Shown here in pieces: positions 11,697-58,972 of a stretch of DNA of 64,000 nucleotides. Numbering within the stretch: position 1 is the first letter of the stretch; every line of letters starts with the position of its first letter. The stretch is from Actinomycetales bacterium Actino_02 (GTDB lineage: Bacteria > Actinomycetota > Actinomycetes > Propionibacteriales > Propionibacteriaceae). Location of the stretch: contig LUYM01000030.1 of assembly GCA_001603275.1 (NCBI GenBank), forward strand, positions 124,001 through 188,000. The letters are read 5' to 3'. A program made the position numbers and the translations under genes. The notes beneath the pieces are model-generated. The model worked only from the letters and a program-made list of their open reading frames with translations, did no database searches and had not been told where the DNA came from.

Positions 11697-11848
11697 GGGG
11701 ACGGTTCCGATTACCGTCCAGCCTTGTCAGGACGCTGCGCTACGAATCTCGGAACCGTCCCCCTTTTGTCCCGGGGACGGGCGGTGCGGTGAGGTCGGGG
11801 CGGGCGGCGAGGAGCTGGGACGTAACAGGAACCGTCCCCTTTTGTCCC
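11697..11848. repeat. GGGAC-type short palindrome cluster between glpK and murJ
   Basis: Three elements fill the convergent gap: a family A copy (11697-11719, one-base insertion), a partial family B copy (about 11751-11772) and a full 32-base family B copy (11817-11848). Family A is GGACGGT, six bases, ACCGTCC, then CC. Family B is GGGACG, ten bases, CGTCCC, then CTTTTGTCCC. The same units recur at ten other places in the window. Confidence 0.85.
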
Positions 11849-19989: not shown

Positions 19990-21239
19990 GTATGGCAACC
20001 GCTCAGCGGGTGCCGACCTTCGCTTCACTGAGCATTCCCAATTACCGGCTCTTCTGGACCGGTGGACTGATCTCCAATGTCGGCACCTGGATGGCCCGGG
20101 TCGCCCAGGACTGGCTGGTGCTGACCGTCCTGACCAACAACTCGGCCTGGGCGCTGGGCATCGTCACCGGCTTGCAGTTCCTGCCGATCGCACTGCTGGC
20201 GCCGTATGCCGGTGCGCTGGCCGACCGGGTGGCGAAGCGTCGGCTGCTGATGTACACCCAGGCCGCCCAGGGTCTGGTCGGCCTCACCATGGCGACGCTG
20301 GTGATCGGCGGCTGGATCCAGCTGTGGCATGTCTACCTGCTGGCCACCCTGCTCGGCATCGCCGCCGCCTTCGACGGGCCGGCGCGGCAGGCCTTCGCAC
20401 CGGAGATGGTCAGCGAGAAGCTGATTCCGAACGCGGTCGGCCTGAACACCACCTCGTTCCACGCGGCCCGGCTGGTCGGACCTGCCGTGGCCGGACTGAT
20501 CATCGGCTGGTGGGGCGTCGGGCCGGCGCTGGCCATCAACGGGCTGAGCTTCCTCGCCGTCCTGACTGCGCTGTACCGGATGGATCCTGAGCGGCTGACG
20601 CCGGCTCCGCGGGTGCGGGCCAAGGGGGCCGTGATGGATGGCGTCCGCTACGTCCGGCGGCGTCCGGACATCATGCTGGCGATGTTCATCGTGTTCATGC
20701 TCGGCACCTTCGGGATGAACTTCCAGATCACCAATGCGCTGATGGCGACCGCGGTGTTCCAGGTGGGGCCCGTGCAGTACGGACTGCTCGGCTCGGTGCT
20801 GGCGATCGGCTCGCTGTCGGCCGGCCTGCTCGCGGCCCGGCGCGTCGACCTGCCCTGGAAGCTGATCGTCGGCTCGCTGGGTGCTTTCGCCATCGCCGAA
20901 CTCGGGCTGGCGGCCATGCCGAACTACTGGTCCTACGCCGTGCTGCTGGTGCCGACCGGCCTGGCCTCGCTGACCGTGATGACGGCCGCCAATGCGTCCG
21001 TGCAGCTGTCCACGGAGCCGGTGATGCGTGGCCGGGTGATGGCGCTCTACCAGGCGATCTTCCTGGGCGGGACACCGCTGGGTGCTCCGCTGATCGGCTG
21101 GGTCGGGGACGCCTTCGGCCCGCGCTGGACGCTGGCCATCGGCGGCATCGCCTGTGTTCTGACCTTCGCGATCGCCGTGGCAGTGCTCGCCCGCCGGCAC
21201 GCGGACGAGGCCATCACCGTCGCTCCGCTCCCCTCCTGA
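19986..21239 (+). CDS. MFS transporter, drug or siderophore exporter type
   Basis: This 417-residue, 12-helix major facilitator starts (after MSMATAQRVP) with the NYRLFWTGGLISNVGTWMARVAQDWLV segment typical of the EntS/MFS_3 export group, and has the ADRVAKRR loop between helices 2 and 3. The GTG start overlaps the marR stop by four bases, so the two are one operon controlled by the operator at 19534-19567. Efflux of the MarR ligand is the likely role; the substrate cannot be named. Confidence 0.88.
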   Translation: MSMATAQRVPTFASLSIPNYRLFWTGGLISNVGTWMARVAQDWLVLTVLTNNSAWALGIVTGLQFLPIALLAPYAGALADRVAKRRLLMYTQAAQGLVGLTMATLVIGGWIQLWHVYLLATLLGIAAAFDGPARQAFAPEMVSEKLIPNAVGLNTTSFHAARLVGPAVAGLIIGWWGVGPALAINGLSFLAVLTALYRMDPERLTPAPRVRAKGAVMDGVRYVRRRPDIMLAMFIVFMLGTFGMNFQITNALMATAVFQVGPVQYGLLGSVLAIGSLSAGLLAARRVDLPWKLIVGSLGAFAIAELGLAAMPNYWSYAVLLVPTGLASLTVMTAANASVQLSTEPVMRGRVMALYQAIFLGGTPLGAPLIGWVGDAFGPRWTLAIGGIACVLTFAIAVAVLARRHADEAITVAPLPS

Positions 21240-21244
21240 TCTTT

Positions 21245-21431
21245 GGGGACGGTTCCATTACCGTCCACCCACGTCAGAGAGATTGGCGGGGACGGTTCCA
21301 TTACCGTCCGGCCAGGTCAACGGTGTTCAGGGACGATCGATGGACGGTAATGGAACCGTCCCCGCTCTGCCCCAAGGCGCGGGGCGCGACGGGTGGTGTG
21401 GGACGTAACAGGAACCGTCCGCTTATGTCCC
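21245..21431. repeat. GGGAC-type short palindrome cluster between the MFS and acyl-CoA ligase genes
   Basis: Three family A copies (21245-21266, 21288-21309, and inverted at 21342-21363) and one 32-base family B copy (21400-21431) nearly fill the 215-base gap between two convergent genes. The A copies are identical over 22 bases. Confidence 0.9.
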
Positions 21432-21454
21432 GCGGGGGACACCGAGGCTCAGAG

Positions 21455-23134
21455 TCAGGGGCGACGGGCCAGGTACTCGTCGCGGAGTTGCTTGCGCAGC
21501 ACCTTGCCCAACATCGAGCGGGGGAAGTCGGGGACGGCCACGATCTTCTTGGGCACCTTGTAGGCGGCCAGTCGCTCCCGGCACCAGGTACGCATGGACG
21601 CCTCGTCCAGGCTTGATCCCGGCCGCAGCATCACCACCGCGACCACCTTCTCGCCGCCATGCGGCGAGGGCACCCCGATCACCGCGGCATCGGCCAGATC
21701 CGGGTGCGTCCGCAGCACTGCCTCGACCTCGGACGGGGCCACATTGAAGCCGCCGGTGATGATCAGTTCCTTGACCCGATCGACGATGGTGGTGAAGCCG
21801 TCGGCATCCACGGTGACCACGTCACCGGTGCGCAGCCAGCCCCCAGGCAGCAGCGTCTTCTCGGTGTCGGCAGGGTTGTTCCAGTAGCCGCCGAAGACCT
21901 GCGGGCCCTGGATCAGCAGCTCACCACGCTCACCGACGGCCACCTCCTTGGTCGGATCCTCGGTGTCGACGACCTTCATGTACGTGCTCGGGAACGGGAC
22001 CCCGATCGTCCCAGCTCGCCGCGACGGCGCGAACGGATTACCCAGGCAGACCGGGGACGCCTCAGTCATCCCGTAGCCCTCGACCAGCAGTCCGCCGGAC
22101 ACGCTCTCCCACAGCTCGACAGTCGAGTTCGGCAGGTTCATCGCCCCGGAGATGCAGTACTTGGCCGAGCGCAGGCTGATCCCGCGCTTCTTCGCCTCGG
22201 CCGCGGTCTTCTCATAGATCGGCGGGACGGCGCAGTACACCGTCGGCGGCGTCTTCTTGGCCGCCGCCAGCACCAGATCCACATCGAAGGACGGGAAGAT
22301 CACCAGCCGCGCCTGCTTGAGGATTCCGTAGGTGAGGAACAGGGTCATCCCGAACGCATGGAACATCGGCAGGATCGCGTAGAAGTTCTCTTTGCGGTAC
22401 TGCGCGCCATGCATCCAGGCCTCGCCCTGGCGGGCGTTGGCGAACAGGTTGTAGTGGCTGAGCATCGCGCCCTTGGAGACTCCAGTCGTCCCGGACGTGT
22501 ACTGGATCACCGCCAGGTCATGGACGCCCGGCTTGGGGTGCGCGGGGTCGATCCGCGGAGCGGAAACCAGCTGCTCCCACGACATCGTCCCCGAGGTCGG
22601 CTGGGTCAGCTTGGCGCGGGTCTCCCGCAGCTTGCGGACGGGCAGGTGCAGCGCCATGGCCTTCAGCTTCGGGAACGCCTTGAGCAGGTTCACCGCGACG
22701 ATCTTGGACAGTGCAATGTCGTCCGGCAGCGCCTGCAGCTTGGCCACGGCCACATCCCAGCAGATCGCCACCCGGGCACCGTGATCCTCGAACTGATGGC
22801 GCAGTTCTCGTTCGGTGTAGAGCGGGTTGTGCTCGACCACGACTGCGCCCAACCGCAGCACGGCGTAGAAGGCGATCACGTGCTGCGGCGAGTTGGGTAG
22901 CACCAACGCCACCCGGTCGCCGGCCTGCACGCCGAGCCGACGCAGCCCTTCGGCGACCCGCTCGACCTGCTCACCGAAGGCGGCATAGGTCGTCGTGCGT
23001 CCGAAGAACTCCAAAGCGATGGAGTCCGCTGCCTCACTGACCGAGCGCTCGTACAGCGCCACCAACGACTCTGTTGGCAGTTCGATCTGGGCAGGTACCC
23101 CTGGCTGATAATGCTTCACCCACGGTGCATCCAC
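21455..23134 (-). CDS. fadD: Long-chain fatty acid-CoA ligase (AMP-forming)
   Basis: The 559-residue ANL-superfamily enzyme activates a fatty acid with ATP and CoA. The P-loop-like motif YTSGTTGVSKGAML lies near residue 215, the A5 motif EGYGMTEASP near 360, and GWLRTGDVVTVD plus the C-terminal lysine region (KVPKKIVAVPDFPRSMLGKVLRK) follow. The GTG start at 23134 lies next to a TTCAC/GTGAA palindrome. It is convergent with the MFS gene. Chain-length preference cannot be read from sequence. Confidence 0.9.
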   Translation of the reverse strand: MDAPWVKHYQPGVPAQIELPTESLVALYERSVSEAADSIALEFFGRTTTYAAFGEQVERVAEGLRRLGVQAGDRVALVLPNSPQHVIAFYAVLRLGAVVVEHNPLYTERELRHQFEDHGARVAICWDVAVAKLQALPDDIALSKIVAVNLLKAFPKLKAMALHLPVRKLRETRAKLTQPTSGTMSWEQLVSAPRIDPAHPKPGVHDLAVIQYTSGTTGVSKGAMLSHYNLFANARQGEAWMHGAQYRKENFYAILPMFHAFGMTLFLTYGILKQARLVIFPSFDVDLVLAAAKKTPPTVYCAVPPIYEKTAAEAKKRGISLRSAKYCISGAMNLPNSTVELWESVSGGLLVEGYGMTEASPVCLGNPFAPSRRAGTIGVPFPSTYMKVVDTEDPTKEVAVGERGELLIQGPQVFGGYWNNPADTEKTLLPGGWLRTGDVVTVDADGFTTIVDRVKELIITGGFNVAPSEVEAVLRTHPDLADAAVIGVPSPHGGEKVVAVVMLRPGSSLDEASMRTWCRERLAAYKVPKKIVAVPDFPRSMLGKVLRKQLRDEYLARRP

Positions 23135-23137
23135 ACG

Positions 23138-23153
23138 TTCACCCTAGTGTGAA
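23138..23153. promoter_or_regulatory. Palindrome immediately upstream of fadD
   Basis: TTCAC-CCTAGT-GTGAA has perfect five-base arms and sits four bases before the fadD start codon. The form is that of a small TetR- or GntR-type operator, plausible for fatty-acid control, but no regulator gene is adjacent. Confidence 0.35.
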
Positions 23154-23275
23154 GCGGGTCCCGACGGGGGCCACCCGGACGAGATTCCTCGCCGGTCGTC
23201 TCGCCGAGGGCTCGCCTTCGCGTCCAGAGCTCGTGCCGGGGTACGAGCCGTCGGCGATAAGGCGAGCCCTGGTTC

Positions 23276-23308
23276 GCAGAAAAAGGGGGGGCAGTCCCCT
23301 TTTTCTGC
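23276..23308. repeat. Family C palindrome (GCAGAAAAAGGGG / CCCCTTTTTCTGC)
   Basis: Perfect 13-base arms with a seven-base loop lie in the gap between fadD and the sigma factor gene. The core resembles families A and B (run of G, then a CAGTCC-type turn). Read on either strand, the hairpin contains A/T runs. Confidence 0.85.
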
Positions 23309-23393
23309 GGGGCCGGCGGCACTGCCGTACGAACAGCGCAACGAACCTGTGTCGGCGCGACTTGTTGTAGGTGTGGGAATCGATGCTGTCACC

Positions 23394-23900
23394 ATGACCG
23401 CCGACATCGGCCTGGACGCCGCCTTCAGCGAATTCGTCCGCAGCCGCAGCCGACGCCTCGGTGACCTGGCCTGGCTGATCACCGGCAACCTCGCTGATGC
23501 CGAGGACGCCGTGCAGGACGCCCTGGCCGGGCTCTACCGGCGCTGGGCGAAGCTGCCGACCGGCGACGAGTTCGAGGCGTACGTCCATCGCAGCCTGGTG
23601 AACGCCTGCCTCGGGGTGATTCGGCGGCGTCCGCGGACGCTCAGTGTCGCCGATCCGGCACTGCTGGCCTCGGCTCCGGTGGGGGCGGATCCGTCCGTGG
23701 CGGTGGCGGCCAGCGATCAGGTCTGGCGGCTGTGCCAGCAGCTGGCCCCCGATCAGCGGGCCGCGGTGGTGCTGCGTTTCTACGGCGACCTCAGCTATGC
23801 CGAGATCGCCGCCGCGCTGGGCTGCCGCGAGGCGACGGCTCGATCCCACGTGAACCGGGCGCTGAAGAAGCTGCGCTCACGGATCGAGGAGACGAAATGA
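23394..23900 (+). CDS. SigE-family ECF RNA polymerase sigma factor
   Basis: About 168 residues with sigma region 2 (FSEFVRSRSRRLGDLAWLITGNLADAEDAVQDAL) and region 4 (LAPDQRAAVVLRFYGDLSYAEIAAALGCREATARSHVNRAL), joined by a short linker, as in the actinobacterial SigE/SigM-like ECF group. It directs RNA polymerase to a small set of promoters. The ATG at 23394 gives the usual family length; a GTG at 23349 would add 15 residues. Its stop overlaps the next start (ATGA), so the downstream membrane protein is probably its partner or target. Confidence 0.9.
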   Translation: MTADIGLDAAFSEFVRSRSRRLGDLAWLITGNLADAEDAVQDALAGLYRRWAKLPTGDEFEAYVHRSLVNACLGVIRRRPRTLSVADPALLASAPVGADPSVAVAASDQVWRLCQQLAPDQRAAVVLRFYGDLSYAEIAAALGCREATARSHVNRALKKLRSRIEETK

Positions 23901-24940
23901 ACGAGGAGGAGCGCGCGTTCCGCGAGGGTCTGCGGCAGGCGGTGGCCGATCGTCCCGGCGGAGTCCGGGTGGACGTTGACGAGGTGATCGCCCGGGCGTC
24001 CTCCCCGGATTTCGTCCCCGAGACCCGATGGACGCCGCCACGTTGGCTGGCCGCCGCGGCCGCCGTGCTGGTGGTTGCCGGTCTGGGGGTTGGCGTGACG
24101 GTGTTCCGGCCCTCGGCCGGGATCCCGGCGGCACCGGCCGCGCCGTCGCCGTCCGCTTCGACCCAGTTCGACGCGAGTGACCTGGTCGGCAGCAGGTGGT
24201 GGGTCGTCCAGATCGACGGACGCAGCGTGTCGGCCACCAATGAAGCCACCCAGCCGTATCTGAGTTTCGCCTCGGCGTCCGACCTCACCTTCTTCGACGG
24301 CTGCAACACCGGCATCGCCCGCTACCGGGTGGGCATCGGCCTGCGTCCGGAGTTCGACGTCACCCTGGGGCCGGTCGGGGCTGTCGCCTGCCGCGAAGAC
24401 CAGGGACGTTTCACCGACGCTCTCGCTGCCGCATGGAGCATCCACAAGAACGGTGAGCTGCTGGAGTTCCTCGACCCGAGCGGCACCGTCGTGCTGCAGC
24501 TGGCCCGGGCGGACGCGACTGCACCGCAGCCCACCCAGCTGCCGACCAATGGTGCCGTCGTGGCCGACGACACCCCCTCGGCTCCGGCCGCGCCCAGCCC
24601 GACACCCACGGCGACCGAGCCGCCCACGGCGTCATCAAGTCAGACCGCTGGGGTGCACGTCCGGATCTACAACGACACCGGAGTCACCTTGCACAAGGTG
24701 AAGGTCGGCTTCCCGGGCGGGGTCGTCATCGGTGTAGACACGATGGCCCCGGGCACCTACAGCGAGTACATGGGCGTCGACGTCGCCTACCAGCTCGCGA
24801 GCTTGGAGGCCACGGCGGACGGGCATCCGTACAAGCTGACGCCGGACGACTATCTCGGCGAGAAGCCACTCGAGCCAGGCAACTACACCTACCGGATCAG
24901 ACTGACCGAGGGGGTCATGTTCCTCGAATTCGGCGACTGA
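23897..24940 (+). CDS. Membrane-anchored META (HslJ-like) domain protein, likely sigma-factor partner
   Basis: About 347 residues: a cytoplasmic N-terminus (MNEEERAFREGLRQAV, about 45 residues), one membrane helix (LAAAAAVLVVAGLGVGVTVF), a META/HslJ-like domain (VGSRWWVVQIDG, then FFDGCNTGIARYRV), a Pro/Ser/Thr linker, and a second small beta domain (HVRIYNDTGVTLHKVKVGF). The start overlaps the sigma stop by four bases. Type I topology and coupling to an ECF sigma gene suggest anti-sigma or sensor function, but I see no ZAS/HxxxCxxC zinc motif, so this is inference from context. Confidence 0.75.
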   Translation: MNEEERAFREGLRQAVADRPGGVRVDVDEVIARASSPDFVPETRWTPPRWLAAAAAVLVVAGLGVGVTVFRPSAGIPAAPAAPSPSASTQFDASDLVGSRWWVVQIDGRSVSATNEATQPYLSFASASDLTFFDGCNTGIARYRVGIGLRPEFDVTLGPVGAVACREDQGRFTDALAAAWSIHKNGELLEFLDPSGTVVLQLARADATAPQPTQLPTNGAVVADDTPSAPAAPSPTPTATEPPTASSSQTAGVHVRIYNDTGVTLHKVKVGFPGGVVIGVDTMAPGTYSEYMGVDVAYQLASLEATADGHPYKLTPDDYLGEKPLEPGNYTYRIRLTEGVMFLEFGD

Positions 24941-25023
24941 GCCTCGTCGCTGCCCGGTGGGCGTGCAGCGGACGCCGCTGTCAGTGGCTCGGCCTAGCAT
25001 GAGTCCGACGAAAGGGTGGACGG

Positions 25024-25596
25024 ATGGGCGAGCGCTGCGGCTGGTGCGGGGATGATCCGCTGTACATCGCCTACCACGACGACGAGTGGGGACGTCCCGT
25101 CCATGACAGCAAGGCGCTGTTCGCCAAGCTGATTCTGGACGGCTTCCAGGCCGGCCTGGCCTGGATCACCATTCTGCGCAAGCGGGACGCCTTCTACGCC
25201 GGCTTCGCCGGACTCGATCCGGACGTGATCGCCGACTGGGGCGAGCCGGACGTGATCTGTCTGCTTGGCGACGCCGGGATCGTCCGGCATCGCGGCAAGA
25301 TCGAGGCGGCCATCGGCAATGCCCGCGCCTGGCAGCAGGTGGAGGCCACCCATCCGGGCGGGTTCTCTGCGCTGATCTGGGACGCCGTCGGCGGGGAACC
25401 GGTCGACCGTGAGCTGGCCAGCCCGTCCGATTACGTGGCGACCGATCCGCGCACCGATGCGCTCTCGAAGCAGCTGAAGAAGCTCGGCTTCCGATTCGTG
25501 GGCCCGACCATCGTCTATGCATTTGCCCAAGCCGTCGGCATGTTCAACGATCATCTGGTGACCTGCCCCAGTCACGACGAGTGCCTGCCCGAATGA
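25024..25596 (+). CDS. tag: DNA-3-methyladenine glycosylase I
   Basis: The 190-residue repair enzyme excises 3-methyladenine from alkylated DNA. It begins RCGWCGDDPLYIAYHDDEWGRP, with the Zn-binding Cys/His residues of Tag (N-terminal Cys and His, with His and Cys near the C-terminus in DHLVTCPSHDEC), and keeps the GFQAGLAWITILRKR and FRFVGPTIVYAFAQAVGMFNDH motifs. Length is as expected. The stop overlaps the start of the EamA transporter gene by four bases. Confidence 0.96.
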   Translation: MGERCGWCGDDPLYIAYHDDEWGRPVHDSKALFAKLILDGFQAGLAWITILRKRDAFYAGFAGLDPDVIADWGEPDVICLLGDAGIVRHRGKIEAAIGNARAWQQVEATHPGGFSALIWDAVGGEPVDRELASPSDYVATDPRTDALSKQLKKLGFRFVGPTIVYAFAQAVGMFNDHLVTCPSHDECLPE

Positions 25597-26453
25597 ACCT
25601 GAAGTTGCCGGCGTGGTTGAGCCCGGTGTGGCTGGTGATCGGCTCGATCGCGTCCGTCCAGCTGGGGGCGGCCTTCGCCAAGTCGCTGTTCCCGCTGGCC
25701 GCACCGACTGCGGTCGCCTGGCTGCGGATGGCCGTGGCGGCGCTGATCTTCTGGGTGATCGCGCGTCCCCGGGTACGCGGACGCAGCTGGCCGGAGTGGC
25801 GGGTGGTGCTCAGCTACGGCGTCGCGCTGGCCACGATGAACTGGGCGATCTACATGGCCTTCTCGCGGATCCCGATCGGACTGGCCGTCACCATCGAGTT
25901 CCTCGGCCCGCTGAGCCTGGCCCTGATCGGCTCGCGGCGAGCCCGCGACTATCTGTGGGTGGCACTTGCTGCGGTCGGGGTGGCGCTGCTCGGCGTGTTT
26001 CCGGTGTCCGTCGACTGGATCGGGGTCGGCTTCGCCCTGCTCGCGGGCGCGGGCTGGGCCTCCTATATCGTCCTCGGACGCCGCACCGGACGAAGCTGGG
26101 AGGGCATCACCGGAGTTTCGATGGGCTCACTGGTGGGCGCGACGGTCTTTCTGGTGCCCGGCCTGGTCGCCGGTGGTGCCGATCTGCTGCAGCCCAAGGT
26201 GTTGCTGCTCGGTGCCCTAGTCGGGCTGCTCAGCTCGGTGATCCCCTATGGGCTGGAGATGGTGGCGCTGCGTTCGATCCCGTCCGGGGTGTTCGGAATC
26301 CTGATGAGTCTCGAGCCGGCCGCCGCCGCGGCGTTCGCACTGCTGGTGCTCGGCGAACAGCTGAGCTGGGTCGAGCTGGTCGCGATGGTCTGTGTTGTTG
26401 TCGCCTCGATCGGCTCGACCCGCAGCCTGGCGTCCGCGCCGGCTCCGAACTGA
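25593..26453 (+). CDS. EamA/DMT-superfamily transporter, RhtA-like exporter
   Basis: A membrane protein of 286 residues with ten helices in two EamA halves. The second half has the IPYGLEMVALRSIPSGVFGILMSLEPAAAA segment typical of RhtA-type (threonine/homoserine) exporters. The ATG at 25593 overlaps the tag stop (ATGA), which makes a start further upstream at 25581 unlikely. Export of amino acids or related metabolites is the family role; the real substrate is unknown. Confidence 0.88.
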   Translation: MNLKLPAWLSPVWLVIGSIASVQLGAAFAKSLFPLAAPTAVAWLRMAVAALIFWVIARPRVRGRSWPEWRVVLSYGVALATMNWAIYMAFSRIPIGLAVTIEFLGPLSLALIGSRRARDYLWVALAAVGVALLGVFPVSVDWIGVGFALLAGAGWASYIVLGRRTGRSWEGITGVSMGSLVGATVFLVPGLVAGGADLLQPKVLLLGALVGLLSSVIPYGLEMVALRSIPSGVFGILMSLEPAAAAAFALLVLGEQLSWVELVAMVCVVVASIGSTRSLASAPAPN

Positions 26454-26587
26454 GGCACTGCCCGGGTGGGCGCTTCTCGACTCGCGGTCTCCTCTGATCT
26501 GTGCAGGCAGCTGGAGCCGGGGTTGTCGTCCACAGATGTCACCAGAGCGCTTCCGCGGTCCTGCCGAACTGACTCACGCTGTTCATC

Positions 26588-27541
26588 ATGCGCAAGCCAA
26601 GGCCGTGGGTTCTACCGACTCAGCCGGTCAGCCGCGCAATCCTGCTGGCCAGCGGCATCACCGAAGCGATGATTCGCGGACGGTTGCGCAGCGGCGAGCT
26701 GATCACGATCCGCGATGGCGTCTACCTGAGCGCCGCAGCGTGGCCGGATGAGCCCGCCGCGCAGCACCTCGTCAGGGGTCATGGCGAACTCGTGGTGAAT
26801 CCGAACGCTGTCCTCAGTCATCAGTCTGCGGCGGTCGTGTGGCGTCTTCCCACGCCCGGCTTCGGCGACTGGCACGACCTCCCGGTTTCGGTGATGCTCC
26901 CAGTGGTCGGTCACAGGTCGCGGACCGGCCAGGCCGTCCATCGGCGCGGTCCGCTGCCGTTGACGCAGGTGCAACGCGATGCCGACGGCTATCCCGTGAC
27001 GAGCCCCGCCCGGACGGCCGTCGACCTCGCCGCCGCTCTCGAGGTGCCGCAGGCGCTCGTGCTGCTCGATGCGGCGGCCCGACTGATCTGCCAGGGACTG
27101 GTCCCGGTCATCCGTCGTCGCGACTACGCAAGTCAGCGGCTGGTGGCAGCCGCGGTCGAGCTGCTGGAGGAGGCTGCGAAGACAATCCACTGCGCGCGGC
27201 TACGGCCGATGTTCTCATTGGTGGATCCGGGGCGTGAGTCGGCAGCCGAGTCGTTGTCGGCGGGTCACTTCGAACTGGCGGGGCTGCCCCGTCCGCGCTA
27301 TCAGGCCGAGTTGCGCACCCACCGGGGCACCTTCTTCGCTGATGCGCTGTGGGACGACAGGCTGGTCGGTGAATGTGATGGCGCAGTGAAGTACAGCGAC
27401 GCGAGCGCCTATGTGCGCGAGAAGGAGCGCGAGCAGGTCCTGCGTGACCTGGGGTATCGCTTCGTCCGCTGGCAGGCGAAGGAGATCATGACCAACCCCG
27501 AGGTCGTCGTCGATCGGGTCGCGCGGGCTCTCGGCGGCTGA
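26588..27541 (+). CDS. DUF559/AbiEi-like HTH domain protein
   Basis: The 317-residue protein has an N-terminal winged-HTH of the AbiEi antitoxin type (ILLASGITEAMIRGRLRSGELITIRDGVYLS), a middle segment (SHQSAAVVWRLP, then SPARTAVDLAAAL), and a C-terminal DUF559 Vsr-like nuclease fold (RYQAELRTHRGTFFADALWDDRLVGECDG, then EKEREQVLRDLGYRFVRWQA). The Asp/Glu pair in the nuclease fold looks intact. Such proteins are numerous in actinobacteria and of unknown function. No toxin partner is adjacent. It is followed by an inverted repeat array. Confidence 0.82.
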   Translation: MRKPRPWVLPTQPVSRAILLASGITEAMIRGRLRSGELITIRDGVYLSAAAWPDEPAAQHLVRGHGELVVNPNAVLSHQSAAVVWRLPTPGFGDWHDLPVSVMLPVVGHRSRTGQAVHRRGPLPLTQVQRDADGYPVTSPARTAVDLAAALEVPQALVLLDAAARLICQGLVPVIRRRDYASQRLVAAAVELLEEAAKTIHCARLRPMFSLVDPGRESAAESLSAGHFELAGLPRPRYQAELRTHRGTFFADALWDDRLVGECDGAVKYSDASAYVREKEREQVLRDLGYRFVRWQAKEIMTNPEVVVDRVARALGG

Positions 27542-27542
27542 C

Positions 27543-27710
27543 GTGAGCTCCGATCTCGTCACTCTCAGGGCGGTTCCGGCAGGCCTCGTCCGCGTGAGCC
27601 CCGATGTTGTTGCTATCAGGGGCTCTCGGGCGGCGCATAGCAGCAACATCGGAGCCCGAGCCTCCTAGGGTCGCGAGAAACCGGCTGAGAGCGACGAAAT
27701 CGGAGCTCAG
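27543..27710. repeat. Array of four copies of a 26-28 base unit, two direct and two inverted
   Basis: Units at 27543-27570 and 27594-27621 share GTGAGC, CCGAT, TCAGGG and alternating positions between. Two inverted copies follow at about 27634-27659 and 27685-27710. Outer copies pair with each other (about 22 of 24 positions), inner copies pair with each other (about 15 of 16), so the array can fold into nested stems. It occupies the convergent gap between the DUF559 gene and the MscS gene. Confidence 0.75.
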
Positions 27711-27848
27711 ATTTCGCCAGAGCGGGCTCAACGCTCCGATTGGTGATCGCCGTCGAGTCACGGAGTGCGCCGTGAGGGCAGGACGCCGTCGGGGCTGCGA
27801 CGCGTCCAAGTGGTCAGCCCGCCCGTCGCTGTCGCCAGAGGGCGCTGG

Positions 27849-28748
27849 TTACTGCTGGCCGACCACGCCGAAGGTGGTCACCGGGCTGCGCACTCCGGCC
27901 TTGGCCAGCGCGGCCATGCTGCGGGCCAGCAGCGTCCGCTGGACGCCGTAGTGCTGGTTCGGGGTGGCCTTGGCCGTCATCCGGATGATCATCGTGGTTG
28001 CCGAAACCGAGTTCACCCCGGCAACAGCCGGACGCTCCAGCAGTACCTTCGCGAGTTCCTCGTCGTCTTCGGCCTCGGTAGCAACCTCGGTGAGAATCTC
28101 GATCACCTTGTCAGCGTCTTCATCCTGGGCGACAGGGATGTCGATGATCGCCGTCGACCAGCCCTGGCTCTGGTTCCCGACTCGCAGGATCTCGCCGTTG
28201 CGGACGTACCAGAGGGTGCCGGTGAAGTCTCGAACCTGGGTGACTCGCAGGCCCACCTCTTCCACAGTGCCGCGCACTTCGCCGACGTCGATCAGGTCAC
28301 CGACGCCGTACTGGTCCTCCATGATCATGAAGATTCCGGAGATGAAGTCCTTGATCAGACTCTGGGCGCCGAAAGCCAGCACCAAGCCGCCGACCCCGGC
28401 CGATGCCAGCAGCGGGGCCATCGGGATGTCGAAGATCGACATGATGGTGAGCAGGCCGATCACCACCACCGTGATCGAGACCAGGTTGCGGGACAGGGAC
28501 GCCACCGTGCGGATCCGCTGCTCGGCGCGTTCGGAGGAGAGCCCGGTGGCTTGGCTGAGCAGTCGCTCGGCGCGGCTCAATGTGCGATCCCGCTGGGCTT
28601 GGGCCCGCTTGATCGCTGAGCGGCTGCCCAGGTCGATAGCGCGGACGATCAGCCAGCGGGCGATCACGGAGATCACCACGATGACACCGATGGCGATCAG
28701 GCTGTCCGGCCAGACCCAGGCGAGAGCGAGCGGTTCCATGTCGGCCAT
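27849..28748 (-). CDS. Small mechanosensitive channel, MscS family
   Basis: The 299-residue channel has an N-terminal membrane segment (SLIAIGVIVVISVIARWLIVRAI), a middle pair of helices with the pore-lining glycine/alanine-rich stretch (LLASAGVGGLVLAFGAQSLIKDFISGIF) and the cytoplasmic beta domain (DQYGVGDLIDVGEVRGTVEEVGLRVTQVRDF). It releases solutes during osmotic downshock. The ATG at 28748 has GGCGGAAG upstream; MEPLALAW at 28739 is an alternative. Single gene. Confidence 0.92.
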   Translation of the reverse strand: MADMEPLALAWVWPDSLIAIGVIVVISVIARWLIVRAIDLGSRSAIKRAQAQRDRTLSRAERLLSQATGLSSERAEQRIRTVASLSRNLVSITVVVIGLLTIMSIFDIPMAPLLASAGVGGLVLAFGAQSLIKDFISGIFMIMEDQYGVGDLIDVGEVRGTVEEVGLRVTQVRDFTGTLWYVRNGEILRVGNQSQGWSTAIIDIPVAQDEDADKVIEILTEVATEAEDDEELAKVLLERPAVAGVNSVSATTMIIRMTAKATPNQHYGVQRTLLARSMAALAKAGVRSPVTTFGVVGQQ

Positions 28749-28936
28749 TCTTCCGCCTCATCGACGGGTCGGACGCGCCCAGGGTGCGAATGTCGCGTAG
28801 TCGGACCGAGGCGTTCACGCTCAGCGCGGGCCGCATGCCGCTCGAGGCCCTGTCCTGGCAGCGGGAGCACTGGGAACATCTAGCGAGGCCACCTGGTTCC
28901 ACAAAATAGTTGAAACTGCAATCAAATGGAGTTGCT

Positions 28937-30064
28937 ATGCAGATCGGGCTGTTCAGCGTCGGTGATGTCACCACCGATCCGACCACCGGGCGCACCCCGA
29001 GTGAGCATGAGCGGATCAAGGCGGCCGTCGCGATCGCGCGCAAGGCCGAGGAGATCGGCCTGGACGTCTTCGCCATCGGCGAGCACCACAACCCGCCGTT
29101 CCATCCGTCCTCGCCGACCACGCTGCTGGGCTACATCGCTGCGCAGACCTCGACGATCACTCTGTCGACGGCGACCACGCTGATCACCACCAACGACCCG
29201 GTCAAGCTCGCCGAGGACTACTCGGTGCTGCAGCACCTGGCCGACGGACGGGTCGACCTGATGCTCGGCCGCGGCAACACCGGCCCGGTCTACCCCTGGT
29301 TCGGCAAGGACATTCGTGACGGTATCGACCTGGCCATCGAGAACTACGCGCTGCTGCGTCGGCTGTGGCGTGAAGAGGTCGTCGACTGGGAGGGCAAGTT
29401 CCGCACTCCGCTGCACGGCTTCACCCTGGCCCCGCAGCCGCTGGACGGGGTGGCTCCGTTCGTCTGGCACGGCTCGATCCGCTCCCCGCAGATCGCCGAG
29501 CAGGCGGCCTACTACGGCGACGGCTTCTTCCACAACAACATCTTCTGGAACATGGGCCACACCAAGCAGATGGTGAGCCTGTACCGGCGCCGCTTCGAGT
29601 TCCACGGGCACGGCCCGGCCGACACCGCGATCGTCGGGCTCGGCGGCCAGTTCTTCGCCCGGAAGAACTCCCAGGACGCGATCAACGAGTTCCGTCCGTA
29701 CTTCGACGTGGCGCCGGTCTACGGCCACGGTCCGAGCCTGGAGGAGTTCATGGCCGAGACCCCGCTGACCGTCGGTTCGCCGCAGCAGGTGCTCGAGCGG
29801 ACGCTCAGCTTCCGCGAGCACGTCGGCCACTACCAGCGTCAGCTGTTCCTGCTCGATCACGCGGGTCTTCCGCTGAAGACCGTCCTGGAGCAACTCGACA
29901 TCCTGGGCGAGCTGCTGCCCGAACTGCGCAAGGGCTTCGCCGAAGGCCGTCCGGCGCACATCCCGGACGCCCCGACGCACGCTTCCCTGGTGGCCGCACG
30001 GGATGCTGCGGCCAACGCGGCGGCAGAGCCCGAGCTGGTTGGGGCCAGTGAGGCCGGACGATGA
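28937..30064 (+). CDS. FMN-dependent luciferase-like monooxygenase, CE1758 type
   Basis: About 375 residues with the TIM-barrel LLM fold: MQIGLFSVGDV, IGLDVFAIGEHHNPPF and the substrate loop DGRVDLMLGRGNTGPVYPWFG. It belongs to the LLM group always paired with a small FMN reductase (the Corynebacterium CE1758/CE1759 pair is the family prototype), and the next gene is that reductase. The reaction is a flavin-dependent oxygenation; no natural substrate is known. The ATG at 28937 has TGGAG upstream. The preceding 60 bases are AT-rich for this genome and may hold the promoter. Confidence 0.88.
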   Translation: MQIGLFSVGDVTTDPTTGRTPSEHERIKAAVAIARKAEEIGLDVFAIGEHHNPPFHPSSPTTLLGYIAAQTSTITLSTATTLITTNDPVKLAEDYSVLQHLADGRVDLMLGRGNTGPVYPWFGKDIRDGIDLAIENYALLRRLWREEVVDWEGKFRTPLHGFTLAPQPLDGVAPFVWHGSIRSPQIAEQAAYYGDGFFHNNIFWNMGHTKQMVSLYRRRFEFHGHGPADTAIVGLGGQFFARKNSQDAINEFRPYFDVAPVYGHGPSLEEFMAETPLTVGSPQQVLERTLSFREHVGHYQRQLFLLDHAGLPLKTVLEQLDILGELLPELRKGFAEGRPAHIPDAPTHASLVAARDAAANAAAEPELVGASEAGR

Positions 30065-30654
30065 CCGAACTCCTGGTGGTCTCGGCCGGCACCGATCCGA
30101 ACTCGAGCAGCCGGCTGCTCGGAACCCGGCTGGGTGAAGCGACGTCCATGGCGCTGGCTGCGGAGGGTGAGCTCGTCAGCGTGCAGCACCTGGAGTTGCG
30201 CACGATCGCGTCCGACCTGACCAACCACCTGATCACCGGCGTCGCCAGCGCGAAGCTGGACGAGGCCTTTGCCCAGGTCCGAGCCGCGGACGGCGTGATC
30301 GCGGTGAGCCCGGTCTACAACGGCTCCTACACCGGGCTGTTCAAGCTGTTCTTCGATGCGCTCGGCCGCGATCTGATGCGCGGACGGCCGGTGCTGCCGG
30401 CTGCCACCGGAGGGACGGCCCGGCACTCGCTGGTGATCGAGTACGCCATGGTGCCGCTGTTCTACTACCTGCGGGCGCTGCTGTCGTCGGTCCCGGTCTT
30501 CGCCGCCACGGCGGACTGGGGCGCCTCAGCCGGCCTGGACGACCGGATCGAGCAGGCCGCCGCCGCCTTCACCAGGCTGGTGCGCGCCGCTCACCCGACC
30601 AAGTCCGATCCGAGCTTCGAGGTCACCGACTTCAGTCAACTGCTCGGCGGCTGA
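30061..30654 (+). CDS. NAD(P)H-dependent FMN reductase, CE1759 type
   Basis: The 197-residue flavodoxin-like reductase has the phosphate-binding N-terminus VVSAGTDPNSSSRLLG and the flavin-site AVSPVYNGSYTGLFKLFFDAL. It supplies reduced FMN to the preceding LLM monooxygenase, with which it overlaps by four bases (ATGA). Strict gene pairing supports a two-component monooxygenase. Confidence 0.9.
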   Translation: MTELLVVSAGTDPNSSSRLLGTRLGEATSMALAAEGELVSVQHLELRTIASDLTNHLITGVASAKLDEAFAQVRAADGVIAVSPVYNGSYTGLFKLFFDALGRDLMRGRPVLPAATGGTARHSLVIEYAMVPLFYYLRALLSSVPVFAATADWGASAGLDDRIEQAAAAFTRLVRAAHPTKSDPSFEVTDFSQLLGG

Positions 30655-30670
30655 GCGGACGTCCGTCCGC
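30655..30670. terminator. Short hairpin between convergent genes
   Basis: GCGGAC-GTCC-GTCCGC occupies almost the whole 17-base gap between the FMN reductase stop and the septum-formation gene stop. It may serve both transcripts as a weak terminator. Confidence 0.4.
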
Positions 30671-30671
30671 G

Positions 30672-31484
30672 TTACTTCTTGGTGCCCTTCAGGCTTCCGG
30701 TGAGCTTGCCGTCGGGGCTGCCTGCAGTGCAGACGATTCGGTGGTCGGCGATCTTCGTCCACGAGTCGTCGGGTGCCAGGAAGGCCGCGATCTCGTAGCT
30801 GGAGCGGCCGACGTCGATGCCCACGAACTTGGTGAAGGCTGCCACACAGACGTCGGTGTACAACGCGTCACGCTCCTTCTGCGTTGGTGCGGCTGTACCC
30901 GTCCACTTCTTCTCGGCGTAGGCCTCGTACTCGTGGCTGGTTGAGCAGTCGACGATCACCGGTGCCTCCCCGGATTGCTGCGAGGTCGTGCATTCGCCGA
31001 CCCGCGGGAAGAACGTGTCGTCGCCCTTGATCGAGGCGGTCAGCTCGGTGTCGGCAGCGCCGACCAGGCAGACCGCTCGGCGGCTGGACGGCTCACTCCA
31101 GGCGGCCTCGTCCGGCACCAGGAACCGGGATGAGTAGCGGCTGAAGCCGGGCTGGGCGCCGAGATAGCTGGTGAAGGCGGACGAGCAGGCCTGGCCGGCC
31201 TCCTGCTTGAGGTCGATCTCGCCGGGATAGTCGGCGCCACTGAGTGGGACGATCTGGCTGACTTCCCAGCGGTGCGCGCTGGTGCAGGCGATGGCCTGCA
31301 CTTGGTCGAGGTCGAAGCTGTCGCCGTCCAGGGCGCCCAGGCAGTCACCGGGTCCGAGCTTGGCCAGCGCGGAGGTACTCGGCGGCGCGCTCGGTGTCGG
31401 GGACGGTGCCGGCGCCGCTGTGCAGCCGGCCACGATGGCGAGCAGGGCACCCCCGGCCAGTATGCCGATTCGTCCGGTTCGCAT
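30672..31484 (-). CDS. Septum-formation family lipoprotein
   Basis: The 270-residue lipoprotein has a signal with a lipobox ending in IVAGC (Cys about 22), then a Pro/Ser linker, and two septum-formation domain copies: LGPGDCLGALDGDSFDLDQVQAIACTSAHRWEV and FPRVGECTTSQQSGEAPVIVDCSTSHEYEAY. Each has the paired cysteines and the C-x-H/EV pattern of this actinobacterial family. Function is unknown despite the family name. The ATG at 31484 has AGGGGGTG upstream and gives the signal at the N-terminus. Confidence 0.82.
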   Translation of the reverse strand: MRTGRIGILAGGALLAIVAGCTAAPAPSPTPSAPPSTSALAKLGPGDCLGALDGDSFDLDQVQAIACTSAHRWEVSQIVPLSGADYPGEIDLKQEAGQACSSAFTSYLGAQPGFSRYSSRFLVPDEAAWSEPSSRRAVCLVGAADTELTASIKGDDTFFPRVGECTTSQQSGEAPVIVDCSTSHEYEAYAEKKWTGTAAPTQKERDALYTDVCVAAFTKFVGIDVGRSSYEIAAFLAPDDSWTKIADHRIVCTAGSPDGKLTGSLKGTKK

Positions 31485-31547
31485 CGCACCCCCTGTGGTT
31501 TCGCCCATGCTAGCGGGGATGCCTTGCGGCCCGTCCTGACCCATAAC

Positions 31548-31570
31548 GGGGACGGTTCCTGTTACGTCCC
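31548..31570. repeat. Partial family B GGGAC-type palindrome
   Basis: A 23-base match to the inverted family B element (GGGGACGGTTCC, then TGTTACGTCCC) lies between the divergent septum-formation and histidine kinase genes. The usual outer GGGAC/AAAG part is not conserved here. Confidence 0.8.
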
Positions 31571-31587
31571 AGGTGGTGCGCGCGGAA

Positions 31588-31671
31588 CGCGCCCCCGATT
31601 CTCTGCAGGCGCCCCCGAAACTCACTCACGCCCGCGAGTATTCGCGGGCACCTGTCAGATATGGGGGCGCG
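31588..31671. repeat. 84-base nested foldback with perfect inner hairpin
   Basis: Outer arms CGCGCCCCC (31588-31596) and GGGGGCGCG (31663-31671) extend imperfectly inwards. Inside is a perfect hairpin GCCCGCGA-GTAT-TCGCGGGC (31630-31649). It lies 104 bases before the histidine kinase start, so it may be transcribed as leader RNA. Confidence 0.6.
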
Positions 31672-31775
31672 AAGTCCCGGGAGCGGAGGTGTTGGACGAG
31701 AGGGGGCGGGTCGGCCCGAGGCGGTGGACGGGTTGGACACGTCCGCACTGGGGTGCTCATCTAGGCTGGAGGACG

Positions 31776-33011
31776 ATGCAACACGCAGACCTGCTGTTCC
31801 CGCCCGGCGCCACCCGCCACGACTGGGTGCTCGACGCCATGATGGCCTTCGGGTTGGGGCTGTTGACGATCTTTCCGTACGGGATTCGCGGCGTCGACCA
31901 CATCACCGCCGGGGCGCAGCTGTTCACCGCATCGCTGATGATCGGTTCACTGGTGCTGCGCCGCCACTCCCCGCTGCTCGCCCTGGCCGGGGTCACTCTT
32001 GCCGGGCTCGGCCAGGTGGTGGTCTCGGACACCCCGATGGCCACGCTGGTGGCCGTCCCGATCGTCGCCTACTCGGTAGCCCGCTGGATTCCCGGCCATG
32101 AGGCCCGGGTGACCCTGGCCGTGGGAGCGATCGGCGCCGTGCTGGGGCCGCTGCGCTGGGTGGTCACCGATCCGGCATATGTCAGCGTGAAAGACCTTGT
32201 CGGACTGTCCTTGTACAGCTTCGTCTGCATGGCGCTGGTGATCACTCCGTACGCCGTGGGACGACGCGTCCGCGAGTCCAGCGAGGCACACCTGGGACGA
32301 GTGGCCGCCGCCGAGGAGCGCTACCGGACCATGGTGGCCGAGCGCGAGCAGCTCACTCGGCTGGCCGAGTCGCGCACCCGCAATCAGATCGCCTCCGAGC
32401 TGCACGACATCGTGGCCCACTCGCTGTCGGTGATGATCGTCCAGGCTGAGGGTGGACGGGCACTGGCCGCCAAGAAGCCCGAGGCGGCAACCGAGGCGCT
32501 GACCACGATCGCCGAAACCGGACGCGAGGCGCTGATGGAGATGCGCCGGATCCTCGGCGTCCTGCGCGACCCGAACTCCGGTGCCGCCGACTTCGCACCG
32601 GCGCCACGGCTGGAGGACATCCCCGAGCTGGTGGCACGCACGTCCGACCGGGTGCAGCTGAGCATTCAGGGACGTCCGCCGCTTCGGCCCTCGGCCGCGC
32701 TCGAGCTCACCGTCTATCGGGTGGTGCAGGAGGCGCTGACCAACTTCCTCAAGCACGCCGGCCCAGACGCCACGGCCATGGTGACGGTCACCTATGGCTC
32801 GACCGAGATCGTGGTCGACGTGCTGGACAATGGGCTGGGAGCCACCGCCGGCGTCCCGGAGACTCCGGGGCACGGGCTGCGTGGGATGAGTGAGCGGGTC
32901 GCCTCGATGGGTGGACGGTTGCACGCTCGTCCGCGACCGGGCGGCGGCTTTCAAGTGACTGCGGTGCTGCCGGTGTCAGGCCCGGTCAGCCAAGATGGAG
33001 GATGGCGATGA
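31776..33011 (+). CDS. Two-component sensor histidine kinase (HisKA_3)
   Basis: The 411-residue kinase has about six membrane helices in residues 10-170, a coiled segment, and the NarL-partner dimerisation box ELHDIVAHSLSVMIVQ with the phospho-accepting His at about residue 210. The C-terminal HATPase_c has DVLDNGLGA and GHGLRGMSERVASMGG. The signal is probably sensed within the membrane. The ATG at 31776 is preceded by GGAGGA; open sequence upstream is repeat DNA. It overlaps the response regulator start and is clearly cotranscribed. Confidence 0.93.
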   Translation: MQHADLLFPPGATRHDWVLDAMMAFGLGLLTIFPYGIRGVDHITAGAQLFTASLMIGSLVLRRHSPLLALAGVTLAGLGQVVVSDTPMATLVAVPIVAYSVARWIPGHEARVTLAVGAIGAVLGPLRWVVTDPAYVSVKDLVGLSLYSFVCMALVITPYAVGRRVRESSEAHLGRVAAAEERYRTMVAEREQLTRLAESRTRNQIASELHDIVAHSLSVMIVQAEGGRALAAKKPEAATEALTTIAETGREALMEMRRILGVLRDPNSGAADFAPAPRLEDIPELVARTSDRVQLSIQGRPPLRPSAALELTVYRVVQEALTNFLKHAGPDATAMVTVTYGSTEIVVDVLDNGLGATAGVPETPGHGLRGMSERVASMGGRLHARPRPGGGFQVTAVLPVSGPVSQDGGWR

Positions 33012-33670: not shown

Positions 33671-33677
33671 AGGTCGG

Positions 33678-33830
33678 CTTCGCTACCGGTGTGGTCGCCT
33701 CACCACTCGTCCGCGCTGCTTCGCATGCTCGCTCGCCCGTCGCTTCGCTACCCGTGGTGGCGCTTCGCTACTCGTAGGGTCACTTCGCTACCGCTAGACG
33801 GGTAGCGAAGCGGGGTGACCGGTAGCGAAG
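33678..33830. repeat. CTTCGCTACC / GGTAGCGAAG repeat array
   Basis: CTTCGCTAC units occur at 33678, 33743, 33763 and 33783, and the complementary GGTAGCGAAG at 33801 and 33821. The central pair (33783-33792 and 33801-33810) makes a perfect ten-base stem with an eight-base loop. The array fills the gap between the response regulator and the convergent photolyase, where it may end both transcripts. Confidence 0.8.
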
Positions 33831-33853
33831 TGGACGGACGGAACCGCGGCGGC

Positions 33854-35284: not shown

Positions 35285-35403
35285 TGGTCCTCCTCTGTGC
35301 GCCAACTCTGAGGTGACGCTAGCCCACCGCATGCTCGCGGTGAATGCGAATGAGTGGGGTCGTTGTCGGCGACCGCCCGGAGACGAGGCCTGCAAGGGTC
35401 CCG

Positions 35404-35524
35404 CAAGAAGAGGGGACTGTCCCTCTTTCTGTGGATCTGCGTTCCGCGTGTGTCTGGCTGGACGGTAATGGAACCGTCCCCATGGACTGGCCTGAGCAGG
35501 GTGGACGGTAATGGAACCGTCCCC
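35404..35524. repeat. One family C and two family A GGGAC-type palindromes
   Basis: A family C copy (about 35404-35431, GAAGAGGGGACTGTCCCTCTT core) is followed by two identical family A copies (35460-35481 and 35503-35524). The last ends four bases before the ketopantoate reductase stop region. Confidence 0.88.
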
Positions 35525-35527
35525 GGG

Positions 35528-43671: not shown

Positions 43672-43855
43672 GGGACGAAAGGGGACCCTTCCTGTTACGT
43701 CCCAACCTTGCCGGAGCGTGAACCCCGGGACGTAACAGGAACCGTCCCCTTCTGTCTCAGTCGGCGGGGAGCGGGGTTCCGGTTCTGGCTGGACGGAAAT
43801 GGAACCGTCCCCGGGGATGGCGGTGACCAGGGCGGACGGTAATGGAACCGTCCCC
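43672..43855. repeat. GGGAC-type palindrome cluster downstream of the AsnC gene
   Basis: Two 32-base family B copies in opposite orientation (43672-43703 inverted, 43727-43758 direct) precede two family A copies (43791-43812 with one substitution, 43834-43855). The facing B copies can pair with each other over most of their length. The cluster separates asnC from the PTS leader. Confidence 0.9.
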
Positions 43856-48351: not shown

Positions 48352-48407
48352 GGGGACGGTTCCTGCATTTCTCGCTGACAAGGGTGGACGGTTTTGGAAC
48401 CGTCCCC
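48352..48407. repeat. GGGAC-type palindromes between the MFS and kinase genes
   Basis: A degenerate copy (48352-48373) and a family A variant with TTTT in the loop (48386-48407) lie in a 69-base gap between convergent genes. The arms of the second copy are exact, while the loop differs, as expected if the stem is what is kept. Confidence 0.85.
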
Positions 48408-49124: not shown

Positions 49125-49156
49125 GGGACGTAACAGGAACCGTCCCCATTCTGTAC
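49125..49156. repeat. Family B GGGAC-type palindrome upstream of the kinase gene
   Basis: A 32-base copy with a divergent tail (CCATTCTGTAC in place of CTTTTGTCCC) lies between the DUF2200 stop and the kinase start on the minus strand, inside a potential transcript of both. Confidence 0.85.
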
Positions 49157-49627: not shown

Positions 49628-49658
49628 CACAGAAAAGGGGACTGTCCCCATCCCTGTG
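49628..49658. repeat. Family C palindrome upstream of the DUF2200 gene
   Basis: CACAGAAAAGGGGACTGTCC followed by CCATCCCTGTG. The inner GGGGAC/GTCCCC arms are perfect and the outer CACAG/CTGTG arms match. Confidence 0.85.
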
Positions 49659-58844: not shown

Positions 58845-58972
58845 GGGGACGGTTCCATTACCGTCCACCCCGCTCACCGCGATTCCTGGGGACGGTTCCA
58901 TTACCGTCCACCTCGGTGCCAGATTCCCTTCATTGCCGCGAGTGCGCGGTGGACGGTAATGGAACCGTCCCC
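58845..58972. repeat. Three family A GGGAC-type palindromes downstream of the acyl-CoA ligase
   Basis: Copies at 58845-58866, 58888-58909 (both GGGGACGG orientation) and 58951-58972 (inverted) are identical over 22 bases and lie between the ligase stop and the CstR-type operator of the next gene. The first begins five bases after the stop codon. Confidence 0.9.

What the first reader, a model, noticed from the sequence alone, without database searches (positions are those of the whole stretch)
21245..21266. Family A: identical 22-base palindromes scattered through gene gaps
GGACGGT, six bases, ACCGTCC and CC recurs at 11697 (variant), 21245, 21288, 21342, 35460, 35503, 43791 (variant), 43834, 48386 (variant), 58845, 58888 and 58951. 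Identity over 22 bases in otherwise unrelated gaps means recent copying, not convergent terminators. Every copy is outside genes. Loop changes (AATGGA, TTTTGGA) leave the arms intact. The form resembles REP sequences moved by RAYT/IS200-like transposases, several of which are flanked by GGGGAC-type repeats, but no such gene is here.
Basis: partly seen in the sequence, partly recalled or inferred. Interest (0 to 1): 0.75.

Follow-up and report, generated by a model that had tools for sequence, protein, structure and literature searches.

The report
REP palindromes and their DnaA-boxed transposase
Short identical palindromes scattered between the genes of this actinobacterium look like copies spread by a small single-strand transposase encoded elsewhere in the same genome, and the gene of that transposase carries, at a fixed place in front of it, what look like binding sites for the cell's replication initiator, which would make the link between repeat spread and DNA replication directly testable.

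Summary
The 20-nt pattern occurs 154 times in the 3.05-Mb genome, control 0. Two RAYT genes are present: the finding's 22-mer brackets RAYT1, a GGGGACAGTCCCC palindrome brackets RAYT2. The exact 22-mer occurs 120 times here, 5 in sister species G015, 0 in 28 other genus genomes; another species' RAYT-flank repeat occurs 322 times there, 0 in 29 others. Three of six window sites lack the element in syntenic G015. The repeats resemble the GGGG-tagged TIRYT / subclass 2.1 kind, for which a survey found no REP-like sequences and, in Actinobacteridae, only IS200-type enzymes. Two departures: neighbours are mostly head-to-tail at 43/44 nt here (40 direct of 50 pairs), though not in G015 (11 of 24); and 22 of 23 lineage RAYT genes have a DnaA box upstream, against 3 of 371 ordinary genes; 18 of 19 leaders with box and -10-like hexamer keep 47-50 nt between them. 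RAYT-driven movement and DnaA control are inferred, not shown.

The parts
11697..11719 (+). family A REP, loop one base longer
   Evidence: not in the syntenic gap of G015, which holds other repeats
21245..21266 (+). family A REP (the finding), first of a head-to-tail pair
   Evidence: gap of G015 is short and without repeats
21267..21287 (+). 21-nt linker of the 43-nt unit
   Evidence: linker consensus over 25 linkers of 21 nt
21288..21309 (+). family A REP, second of the pair
21342..21363 (-). family A REP, opposed to the pair (GGGGAC tags outward)
35460..35481 (-). family A REP of a head-to-tail pair
   Evidence: pair shared with G015, where both copies differ at the same loop base
35503..35524 (-). 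family A REP of a head-to-tail pair
43791..43812 (-). family A REP, one arm mismatch
   Evidence: pair shared with G015
43834..43855 (-). family A REP
48386..48407 (-). family A REP variant, opposed to a related + copy (GGGGACGGTTCCTGC...) at 48352; shared with G015
58845..58866 (+). family A REP of a head-to-tail pair; array not in G015, whose gap holds only a REP-like dyad that may be an eroded copy
58888..58909 (+). family A REP of a head-to-tail pair
58951..58972 (-). family A REP opposed to the pair
31548..31571 (+). family B repeat GGGGACGGTTCCTGTTACGTCCCA; not in G015
43727..43749 (-). family B repeat, opposed to a + copy at 43681; not in G015
49125..49147 (-). family B repeat, shared with G015; falls inside a gene call (48419-49174) whose start is uncertain
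49637..49649 (-). family C core (GGGGACAGTCCCC), the repeat type that brackets RAYT2

Best explanation
The palindromes are REP elements mobilised by RAYT1, a Y1 HUH transposase (262 aa) at C29:17854-18639 of the same genome. Shown: RAYT1 is bracketed by copies of this family with the GGGGAC tag pointing outward; relatives' RAYTs are bracketed by repeats of their own; the two species-specific repeats tested are abundant only in the genome that carries the matching RAYT; sites differ between sister species. Inferred from E. coli TnpA-REP: the enzyme binds the tagged hairpin as single-stranded DNA, cuts beside it with its tyrosine and joins the excised strand elsewhere. Inferred from the arrays: the copied unit is REP plus about 21 nt of linker (43/44 nt), so that inserting or re-joining one unit next to another makes head-to-tail arrays. 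Further inferred: transcription of the RAYT is governed by DnaA through one or two DnaA boxes between the 5' repeat and the start codon, which would tie enzyme supply to replication initiation, when its single-stranded substrate is exposed.
For: 154 genomic copies, control 0. Two Y1_Tnp genes; the best NCBIfam hit of both is REP-associated tyrosine transposase, at 68 and 72 bits, below the model's cut-off of 80. H60, H62 and Y119 invariant in all 17 aligned RAYTs. All 17 of 21 genus RAYT loci that I oriented and read have GGGGAC repeats on both sides (in L036 the 3' copy lies in the end of the reading frame). Core counts: 14 RAYT-bearing genomes median 68.7 per Mb, 16 without 8.3, p = 6e-6; reversed-pattern control alike. 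Cognate repeats 120 / 5 / 0 of 28 and 322 / 0 of 29. Sites lacking in G015. Unit length: of the 100 exact copies listed (of 120), 30 of 31 same-strand neighbours are at 43 or 44 nt; adjacent linkers in one array average 0.77 identity (n = 7) against 0.54 between arrays. DnaA box: 22 of 23 RAYT leaders, mean 0.03 of 23 in shuffles, 3 of 371 ordinary genes; 18 of the 19 leaders with both elements have 47-50 nt between box and TANNNT; a second TCCACA 29-32 nt upstream in 13 of 22. The same motif lies upstream of dnaA and dnaB.
Against: No movement was observed. G009 has 111 core motifs without a detected RAYT (180-contig draft). Head-to-tail order is not general: in G015 only 11 of 24 neighbour pairs are direct. 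Three of seven adjacent-linker pairs are within the range of pairs from different arrays. L030, the RAYT of G015, has only a degenerate TCCACA at -110, and L022 has its box at -113, 79 nt from the hexamer. TANNNT is a weak pattern and no promoter was mapped. The RAYT C-terminal helix-turn-helix shows no detectable likeness to DnaA domain IV (hhalign probability 1.7%). Only 3 of 59 RAYT loci outside the lineage have even a loose box, so DnaA control is not a rule of the enzyme class. Origin-proximal clustering in G015 (27 of 44 clusters within 0.4 Mb) is not seen in the listed sites of Micropruina glycogenica, and no strand bias was found in G015.
Confidence: 0.88

Rival explanations
1. The palindromes are selected intrinsic terminators or mRNA-stabilising hairpins at gene ends.
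For: Convergent gaps hold 31 of 84 intergenic copies though they make up about 13% of intergenic bases; divergent gaps hold 14 of 84 against about 28% of bases (rough gene calls). The 22-mer folds well (z -2.8).
Against: No T run: none of the family A copies in the two scanned stretches (21200-36000, 43000-60000) is called a terminator; three family C palindromes are. Identical 22-mers, presence/absence between sisters and RAYT linkage are not expected.
Confidence: 0.06
2. They are MITEs of an ordinary DDE transposase with terminal inverted repeats, and the RAYT is a bystander.
For: Opposed copies with tags outward look like terminal inverted repeats.
Against: Genus RAYTs are bracketed by their own species-specific repeats (17 of 21 read, three more); motif density follows RAYT presence; tandem single-unit arrays are not MITE-like.
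Confidence: 0.03
3. The DnaA-box-like motif is the RAYT's own operator, read by its C-terminal helix-turn-helix, and not a site for DnaA.
For: Among RAYT loci the motif is found in this lineage only, and the proteins seem to end in an HTH (weak Pfam matches); subclass 2.1 members elsewhere have DnaA-like or HTH C-termini.
Against: The same motif lies upstream of dnaA and dnaB; the HTH does not detectably resemble DnaA domain IV.
Confidence: 0.3
4. The box is conserved by descent from one ancestral leader and has no function.
For: All carriers are one protein family (45-61% identity to RAYT1 in the alignment), so they are not independent.
Against: The rest of the leader shows little conservation while about 12 bases and two spacings stay nearly fixed; TCCACA occurs 0 times in 3319 nt of the leaders further upstream.
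Confidence: 0.1

Closest known systems
TIRYT / TIRtron (Di Nocera group 2013, PMC3733652; passages seen)
   Same: RAYT-like gene bracketed by inverted repeats, many with a GGGG-type motif (their consensus GGGGWSAS), some with moderately abundant families in the genome, in dimers or clusters.
   Different: Their consensus fits GGGGACAG but not GGGGACGG exactly. Here families of over a hundred copies (120 and 322 exact), and a DnaA box before the gene. [quoted passage not shown]
TnpA-REP subclass 2.1 / RAYT group 1 (PMC6006769; passages seen)
   Same: HUH-Y1 core plus a C-terminal extension; most TIRYT examples with GGGG-type repeats belong there.
   Different: That survey found no REP-like sequences beside subclass 2.1 and, in its sample, only subclass 1.1 in Actinobacteridae; it noted that the repeats do not resemble DnaA boxes, whereas here the boxes stand between repeat and gene. 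Placement of these proteins in subclass 2.1 was not tested.
REPINs of Pseudomonas fluorescens SBW25 (PMC3116915; passages seen)
   Same: Intergenic, high-copy, conserved REP with variable spacer, linked to RAYTs; some tandem arrays are reported there too.
   Different: 93% of 430 SBW25 doublets are inverted; here 40 of 50 neighbour pairs are direct, though 11 of 24 in G015.
GTAG REPs and E. coli TnpA-REP (PMC8266576; passages seen)
   Same: Tagged palindrome recognised on one strand by a Y1 enzyme.
   Different: Tag is GGGGAC and partly inside the stem; no GTAG.

Membership tests
REP / RAYT system | short palindrome, high copy, intergenic | tested here: met
   154 copies; 84 of 91 cores intergenic
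REP / RAYT system | Y1 HUH transposase flanked by the same repeat | tested here: met
REP / RAYT system | single-strand cleavage at or near the tag | not testable with these tools
   needs purified protein
GTAG-tagged REP | 5' GTAG tetranucleotide | tested here: not met
   5' end is GGGGACGGTTCC in 90 of 91 sampled copies
CGTC-tagged REP | no dedicated flanked transposase | tested here: not met
   RAYT1 is flanked by the family
REPIN | doublet of two inverted REPs as the usual unit | tested here: not met
   own sample 40 direct, 10 inverted of 50 pairs; G022 41 direct, 17 inverted of 58 (100 of 322 copies); but G015 11 direct, 13 inverted of 24
TIRYT / subclass 2.1 | GGGG-type inverted flanking repeats | tested here: met
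   17 of 21 genus loci read
TIRYT / subclass 2.1 | C-terminal HTH or Bac_DnaA_C domain | tested here: inconclusive
   weak HTH_23 in 10 of 17 members, best E 7.5e-4, no Bac_DnaA_C among the 25 families shown; hhalign to DnaA IV negative
TIRYT / subclass 2.1 | clustering with subclass 2.1 sequences in the published classification | not tested
   their sequences were not at hand
DnaA regulon | DnaA box at a near-fixed promoter position | tested here: met
   21 of 23 leaders at -76 to -91, one at -113, one without
DnaA regulon | DnaA binding and transcriptional effect | not testable with these tools
   bench work

The most novel reading that the evidence does not exclude
A REP transposase family has been placed in the DnaA regulon of its host, so that the enzyme is made in step with replication initiation, when its single-stranded hairpin substrate is exposed, and in several species its short units (21 to 44 nt) are copied head-to-tail beside existing ones. 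Other genes of this genome that may be mobile (three DUF222 genes) carry the same boxes, hinting that selfish elements of this lineage share a timing device.
Probability: 0.45. Interest if true: 0.8.

Novelty: new variant of a known kind. Interest (0 to 1): 0.6.

Why it matters
The link between REP spread and replication forks rests mainly on analogy with IS200/IS605. A conserved DnaA box in front of the RAYT gives a direct, cheap test of replication-coupled control of a domesticated transposase. The family also shows that GGGGAC-tagged repeats can build populations of hundreds of copies, in a phylum where a survey reported only the IS200 type, and often with a head-to-tail unit.

Tried and rejected
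Rejected: that the RAYT C-terminal domain is a detectable DnaA domain IV (hhalign 1.7%; four column-shuffled controls 0.1-0.7%, N-terminal part 0.2%). Rejected as a general rule: clustering of REPs near the origin (seen in G015, not in Micropruina glycogenica; both place lists were cut by the tool, 100 of 109 and 100 of 131, the missing ones being at the high end of the contig; one search used a rounded genome length, mended) and strand bias. The REP core type changes 6 times on a mostly unresolved RAYT tree; only the GGGGACAGTCCCC type forms a supported clade, and no comparison with shuffled labels was made. No Rfam family reaches its gathering score in the window. No target-site duplication could be read, since flanks differ too much between the two species.

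Literature: passages seen of PMC3733652, PMC6006769, PMC8266576, PMC3116915; for other papers only search listings. The searches showed no report of DnaA boxes before RAYT genes or of REPs in these genera; the library lacks most subscription papers, and the 2017 RAYT-group paper was not among the hits.

Rows dropped or weak: 4 of 21 genus RAYT loci (L022, L025, L027, L034) were not oriented by my script for but enter. 18 of 20 named lineage loci duplicate genus loci and were removed, leaving 23. In one search the upstream of L129 was read wrongly because the match starts at the contig edge, so 58 of 59 outside loci are usable. Gene calls come from a simple codon-score caller of my own; start sites are rough. 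RAYT2 has an earlier ATG (275 aa); box distance was counted from the start that aligns with the family.

Full report
Observation. The window holds the palindrome at every place named, ten exact and two variant copies, above chance (19 against 0.59 with two mismatches). The genome from which it comes (3.05 Mb, 31 contigs; the window is contig 30, 124001-188000) holds 154 exact GGACGGTN6ACCGTCC sites and none of the reversed control. Over 464 kb sampled (window, 380 kb of contig 6, 20 kb of contig 29), 91 copies with up to four mismatches were found; 90 of them have the same first 12 bases, GGGGACGGTTCC, and the 3' half is looser. The genus contains records named Propionicimonas and Propionibacteriaceae (by loci identical to genus loci); the genome itself is unnamed.

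Source of the copies. Two Y1_Tnp genes exist, both on contig 29. RAYT1 (262 aa) has two family A copies upstream, 43 nt apart, and three inverted copies downstream. RAYT2 (275 aa from its first ATG) is bracketed by a GGGGACAGTCCCC palindrome, copies of which lie in the window. In the genus, 14 of 30 genomes carry such genes, 21 in all. I read the flanks of 17 of these 21: all have GGGGAC repeats on both sides, in L036 the 3' one within the end of the reading frame, with a 3' part that differs between genes; tags point outward except in the three genes with the symmetrical GGGGACAGTCCCC. Genomes with a RAYT have a median 68.7 core motifs per Mb (range 22-153), those without 8.3 (1.8-32.6), p = 6e-6; the reversed control has 4.6 and 4.2 (medians are the upper middle value). 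The clearest exception is G009, 111 motifs without a detected gene. The exact 22-mer is nearly private: 120 here, 5 in G015, 0 in 28 others; the flank repeat of the G022 RAYT is 322 there and 0 in 29 others. Only these two repeats were tested so.

Turnover. The window is syntenic with G015:C1:2973508-3039949 at 75-96% identity in blocks. The arrays at 21245 and 58845 and the copy at 11697 are lacking there; those at 35460, 43791 and 48386 are shared. The G015 gap opposite 21245 is short and free of repeats; that opposite 58845 holds a REP-like dyad that may be an eroded copy; that opposite 11697 holds other repeats. In the shared 35460 pair both copies differ between the species at the same loop base.

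Array anatomy. In the 464-kb sample neighbours within 200 nt are direct in 40 of 50 pairs and opposed with tags outward in 10, with tags inward in 0. Among the 100 exact copies listed (of 120), 30 of 31 same-strand neighbours within 250 nt are 43 or 44 nt apart. Linkers of 21 nt share a consensus ACCCTnGTCAGCGCGATTCnT (25 linkers); adjacent linkers of one array average 0.77 identity (n = 7, range 0.38-1.0) against 0.54 between arrays and 0.50 for random letters. Other genes have their own period: 22-23 nt in Micropruina glycogenica with up to nine same-strand copies in a row, 26 nt in L029 and 21 nt in L031. The rule is not general: G022 has 41 direct, 14 outward and 3 inward of 58 pairs (100 of 322 copies), M. 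glycogenica 2 inward among 24 clusters, and G015 11 direct, 11 outward and 2 inward of 24 pairs (71 listed copies). Copies are mostly intergenic (84 of 91 cores) and over-represented in convergent gaps (31 of 84; about 13% of intergenic bases). Family A copies are not called terminators.

DnaA boxes. Reading RAYT leaders showed AGTTATCCACAG in otherwise dissimilar sequence. The whole genome has 28 TTDTCCACA sites (reversed control 7); both RAYTs have one, 88 and 82 nt before the start codon. Of 23 non-redundant RAYT loci of the lineage 22 have TTNTCCACA on the coding strand, 21 of them at -76 to -91 and L022 at -113; L030 has only a lone TCCACA at -110. Nineteen of these leaders also have a TANNNT hexamer in the last 75 nt; in 18 the distance from box to hexamer is 47-50 nt, in L022 79 nt. 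A second TCCACA lies 29-32 nt upstream of the main one in 13 of 22, while the region from -300 to -150 has none in 3319 nt. Of 371 genes in 444 kb of this genome, 3 have such a box within 150 nt (Fisher p = 8e-32, not corrected for shared descent of the RAYTs); block-shuffled leaders average 0.03 of 23. Outside the lineage 3 of 59 RAYT loci (58 usable) have a loose match at no fixed place. By my rough gene of the 28 sites of this genome are intergenic; among them are sites 49 nt before dnaA and 149 nt before dnaB (both in reverse orientation to the gene), 87 nt before a ParA/CbiA-type gene, near an ATP-cone (NrdR-like) gene whose start is uncertain, and 8-59 nt before three DUF222 genes. This argues that the motif is a true DnaA site.

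Reading. That the copies are REP elements of RAYT1 is well supported by linkage, private cognate repeats and turnover. The single-strand mechanism is by analogy with TnpA-REP and was not tested. Copying of a 43-nt unit head-to-tail is inferred from period and linker likeness; slippage or recombination could lengthen arrays too. DnaA control is inferred from position and conservation; the RAYT's own HTH is the chief rival reader of the box.

Comparison. The class is known: TIRYT genes with GGGGWSAS repeats (PMC3733652, passages) and TnpA-REP subclass 2.1 (PMC6006769, passages). The latter found no REP-like sequences with this subclass, only IS200-type enzymes in Actinobacteridae of its sample, and compared the repeats with DnaA boxes; the passages seen do not mention boxes in the leader. 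SBW25 REPINs are 93% inverted, with some tandem arrays (PMC3116915, passages). Hence a new variant of a known kind.

Noticed in passing
52469-52491: Two DnaA boxes (TTATCCACAGGAGTTGTCCACAG on the minus strand) in a gap without a near same-strand gene by my rough gene calls.
   Followed up: partly
own genome C28:34522, C6:322173, C6:358416 (L199, L055, L056): Three DUF222 genes have a DnaA box 8-59 nt before their predicted start. DUF222 proteins are often repeated, possibly mobile families (recalled), so RAYTs may not be the only such genes with this signal.
   Followed up: partly
G015 contig 1: REP clusters of G015 are origin-proximal: 27 of 44 within 0.4 Mb of dnaA, against 10 of 29 background motifs; not seen in the listed sites of Micropruina glycogenica.
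   Followed up: partly
33673-33835 and 36666-36907: Another short repeat family around ACCGGTAGCG in two gaps, without the GGGGAC motif.
   Followed up: no
61967-63793: Repeated 65-nt segments 267 nt apart within coding sequence, as of a tandem-domain protein.
   Followed up: no
L232, gap opposite window 11697: In G015 this gap holds a different, longer duplicated repeat (around GGTCGCGTTCGAGCGACGTGTCTGTTGAAACCCGCAATTGGC).
   Followed up: no
G009: 111 GGGGAC core motifs but no Y1 transposase found: a relic population or an assembly gap.
   Followed up: no
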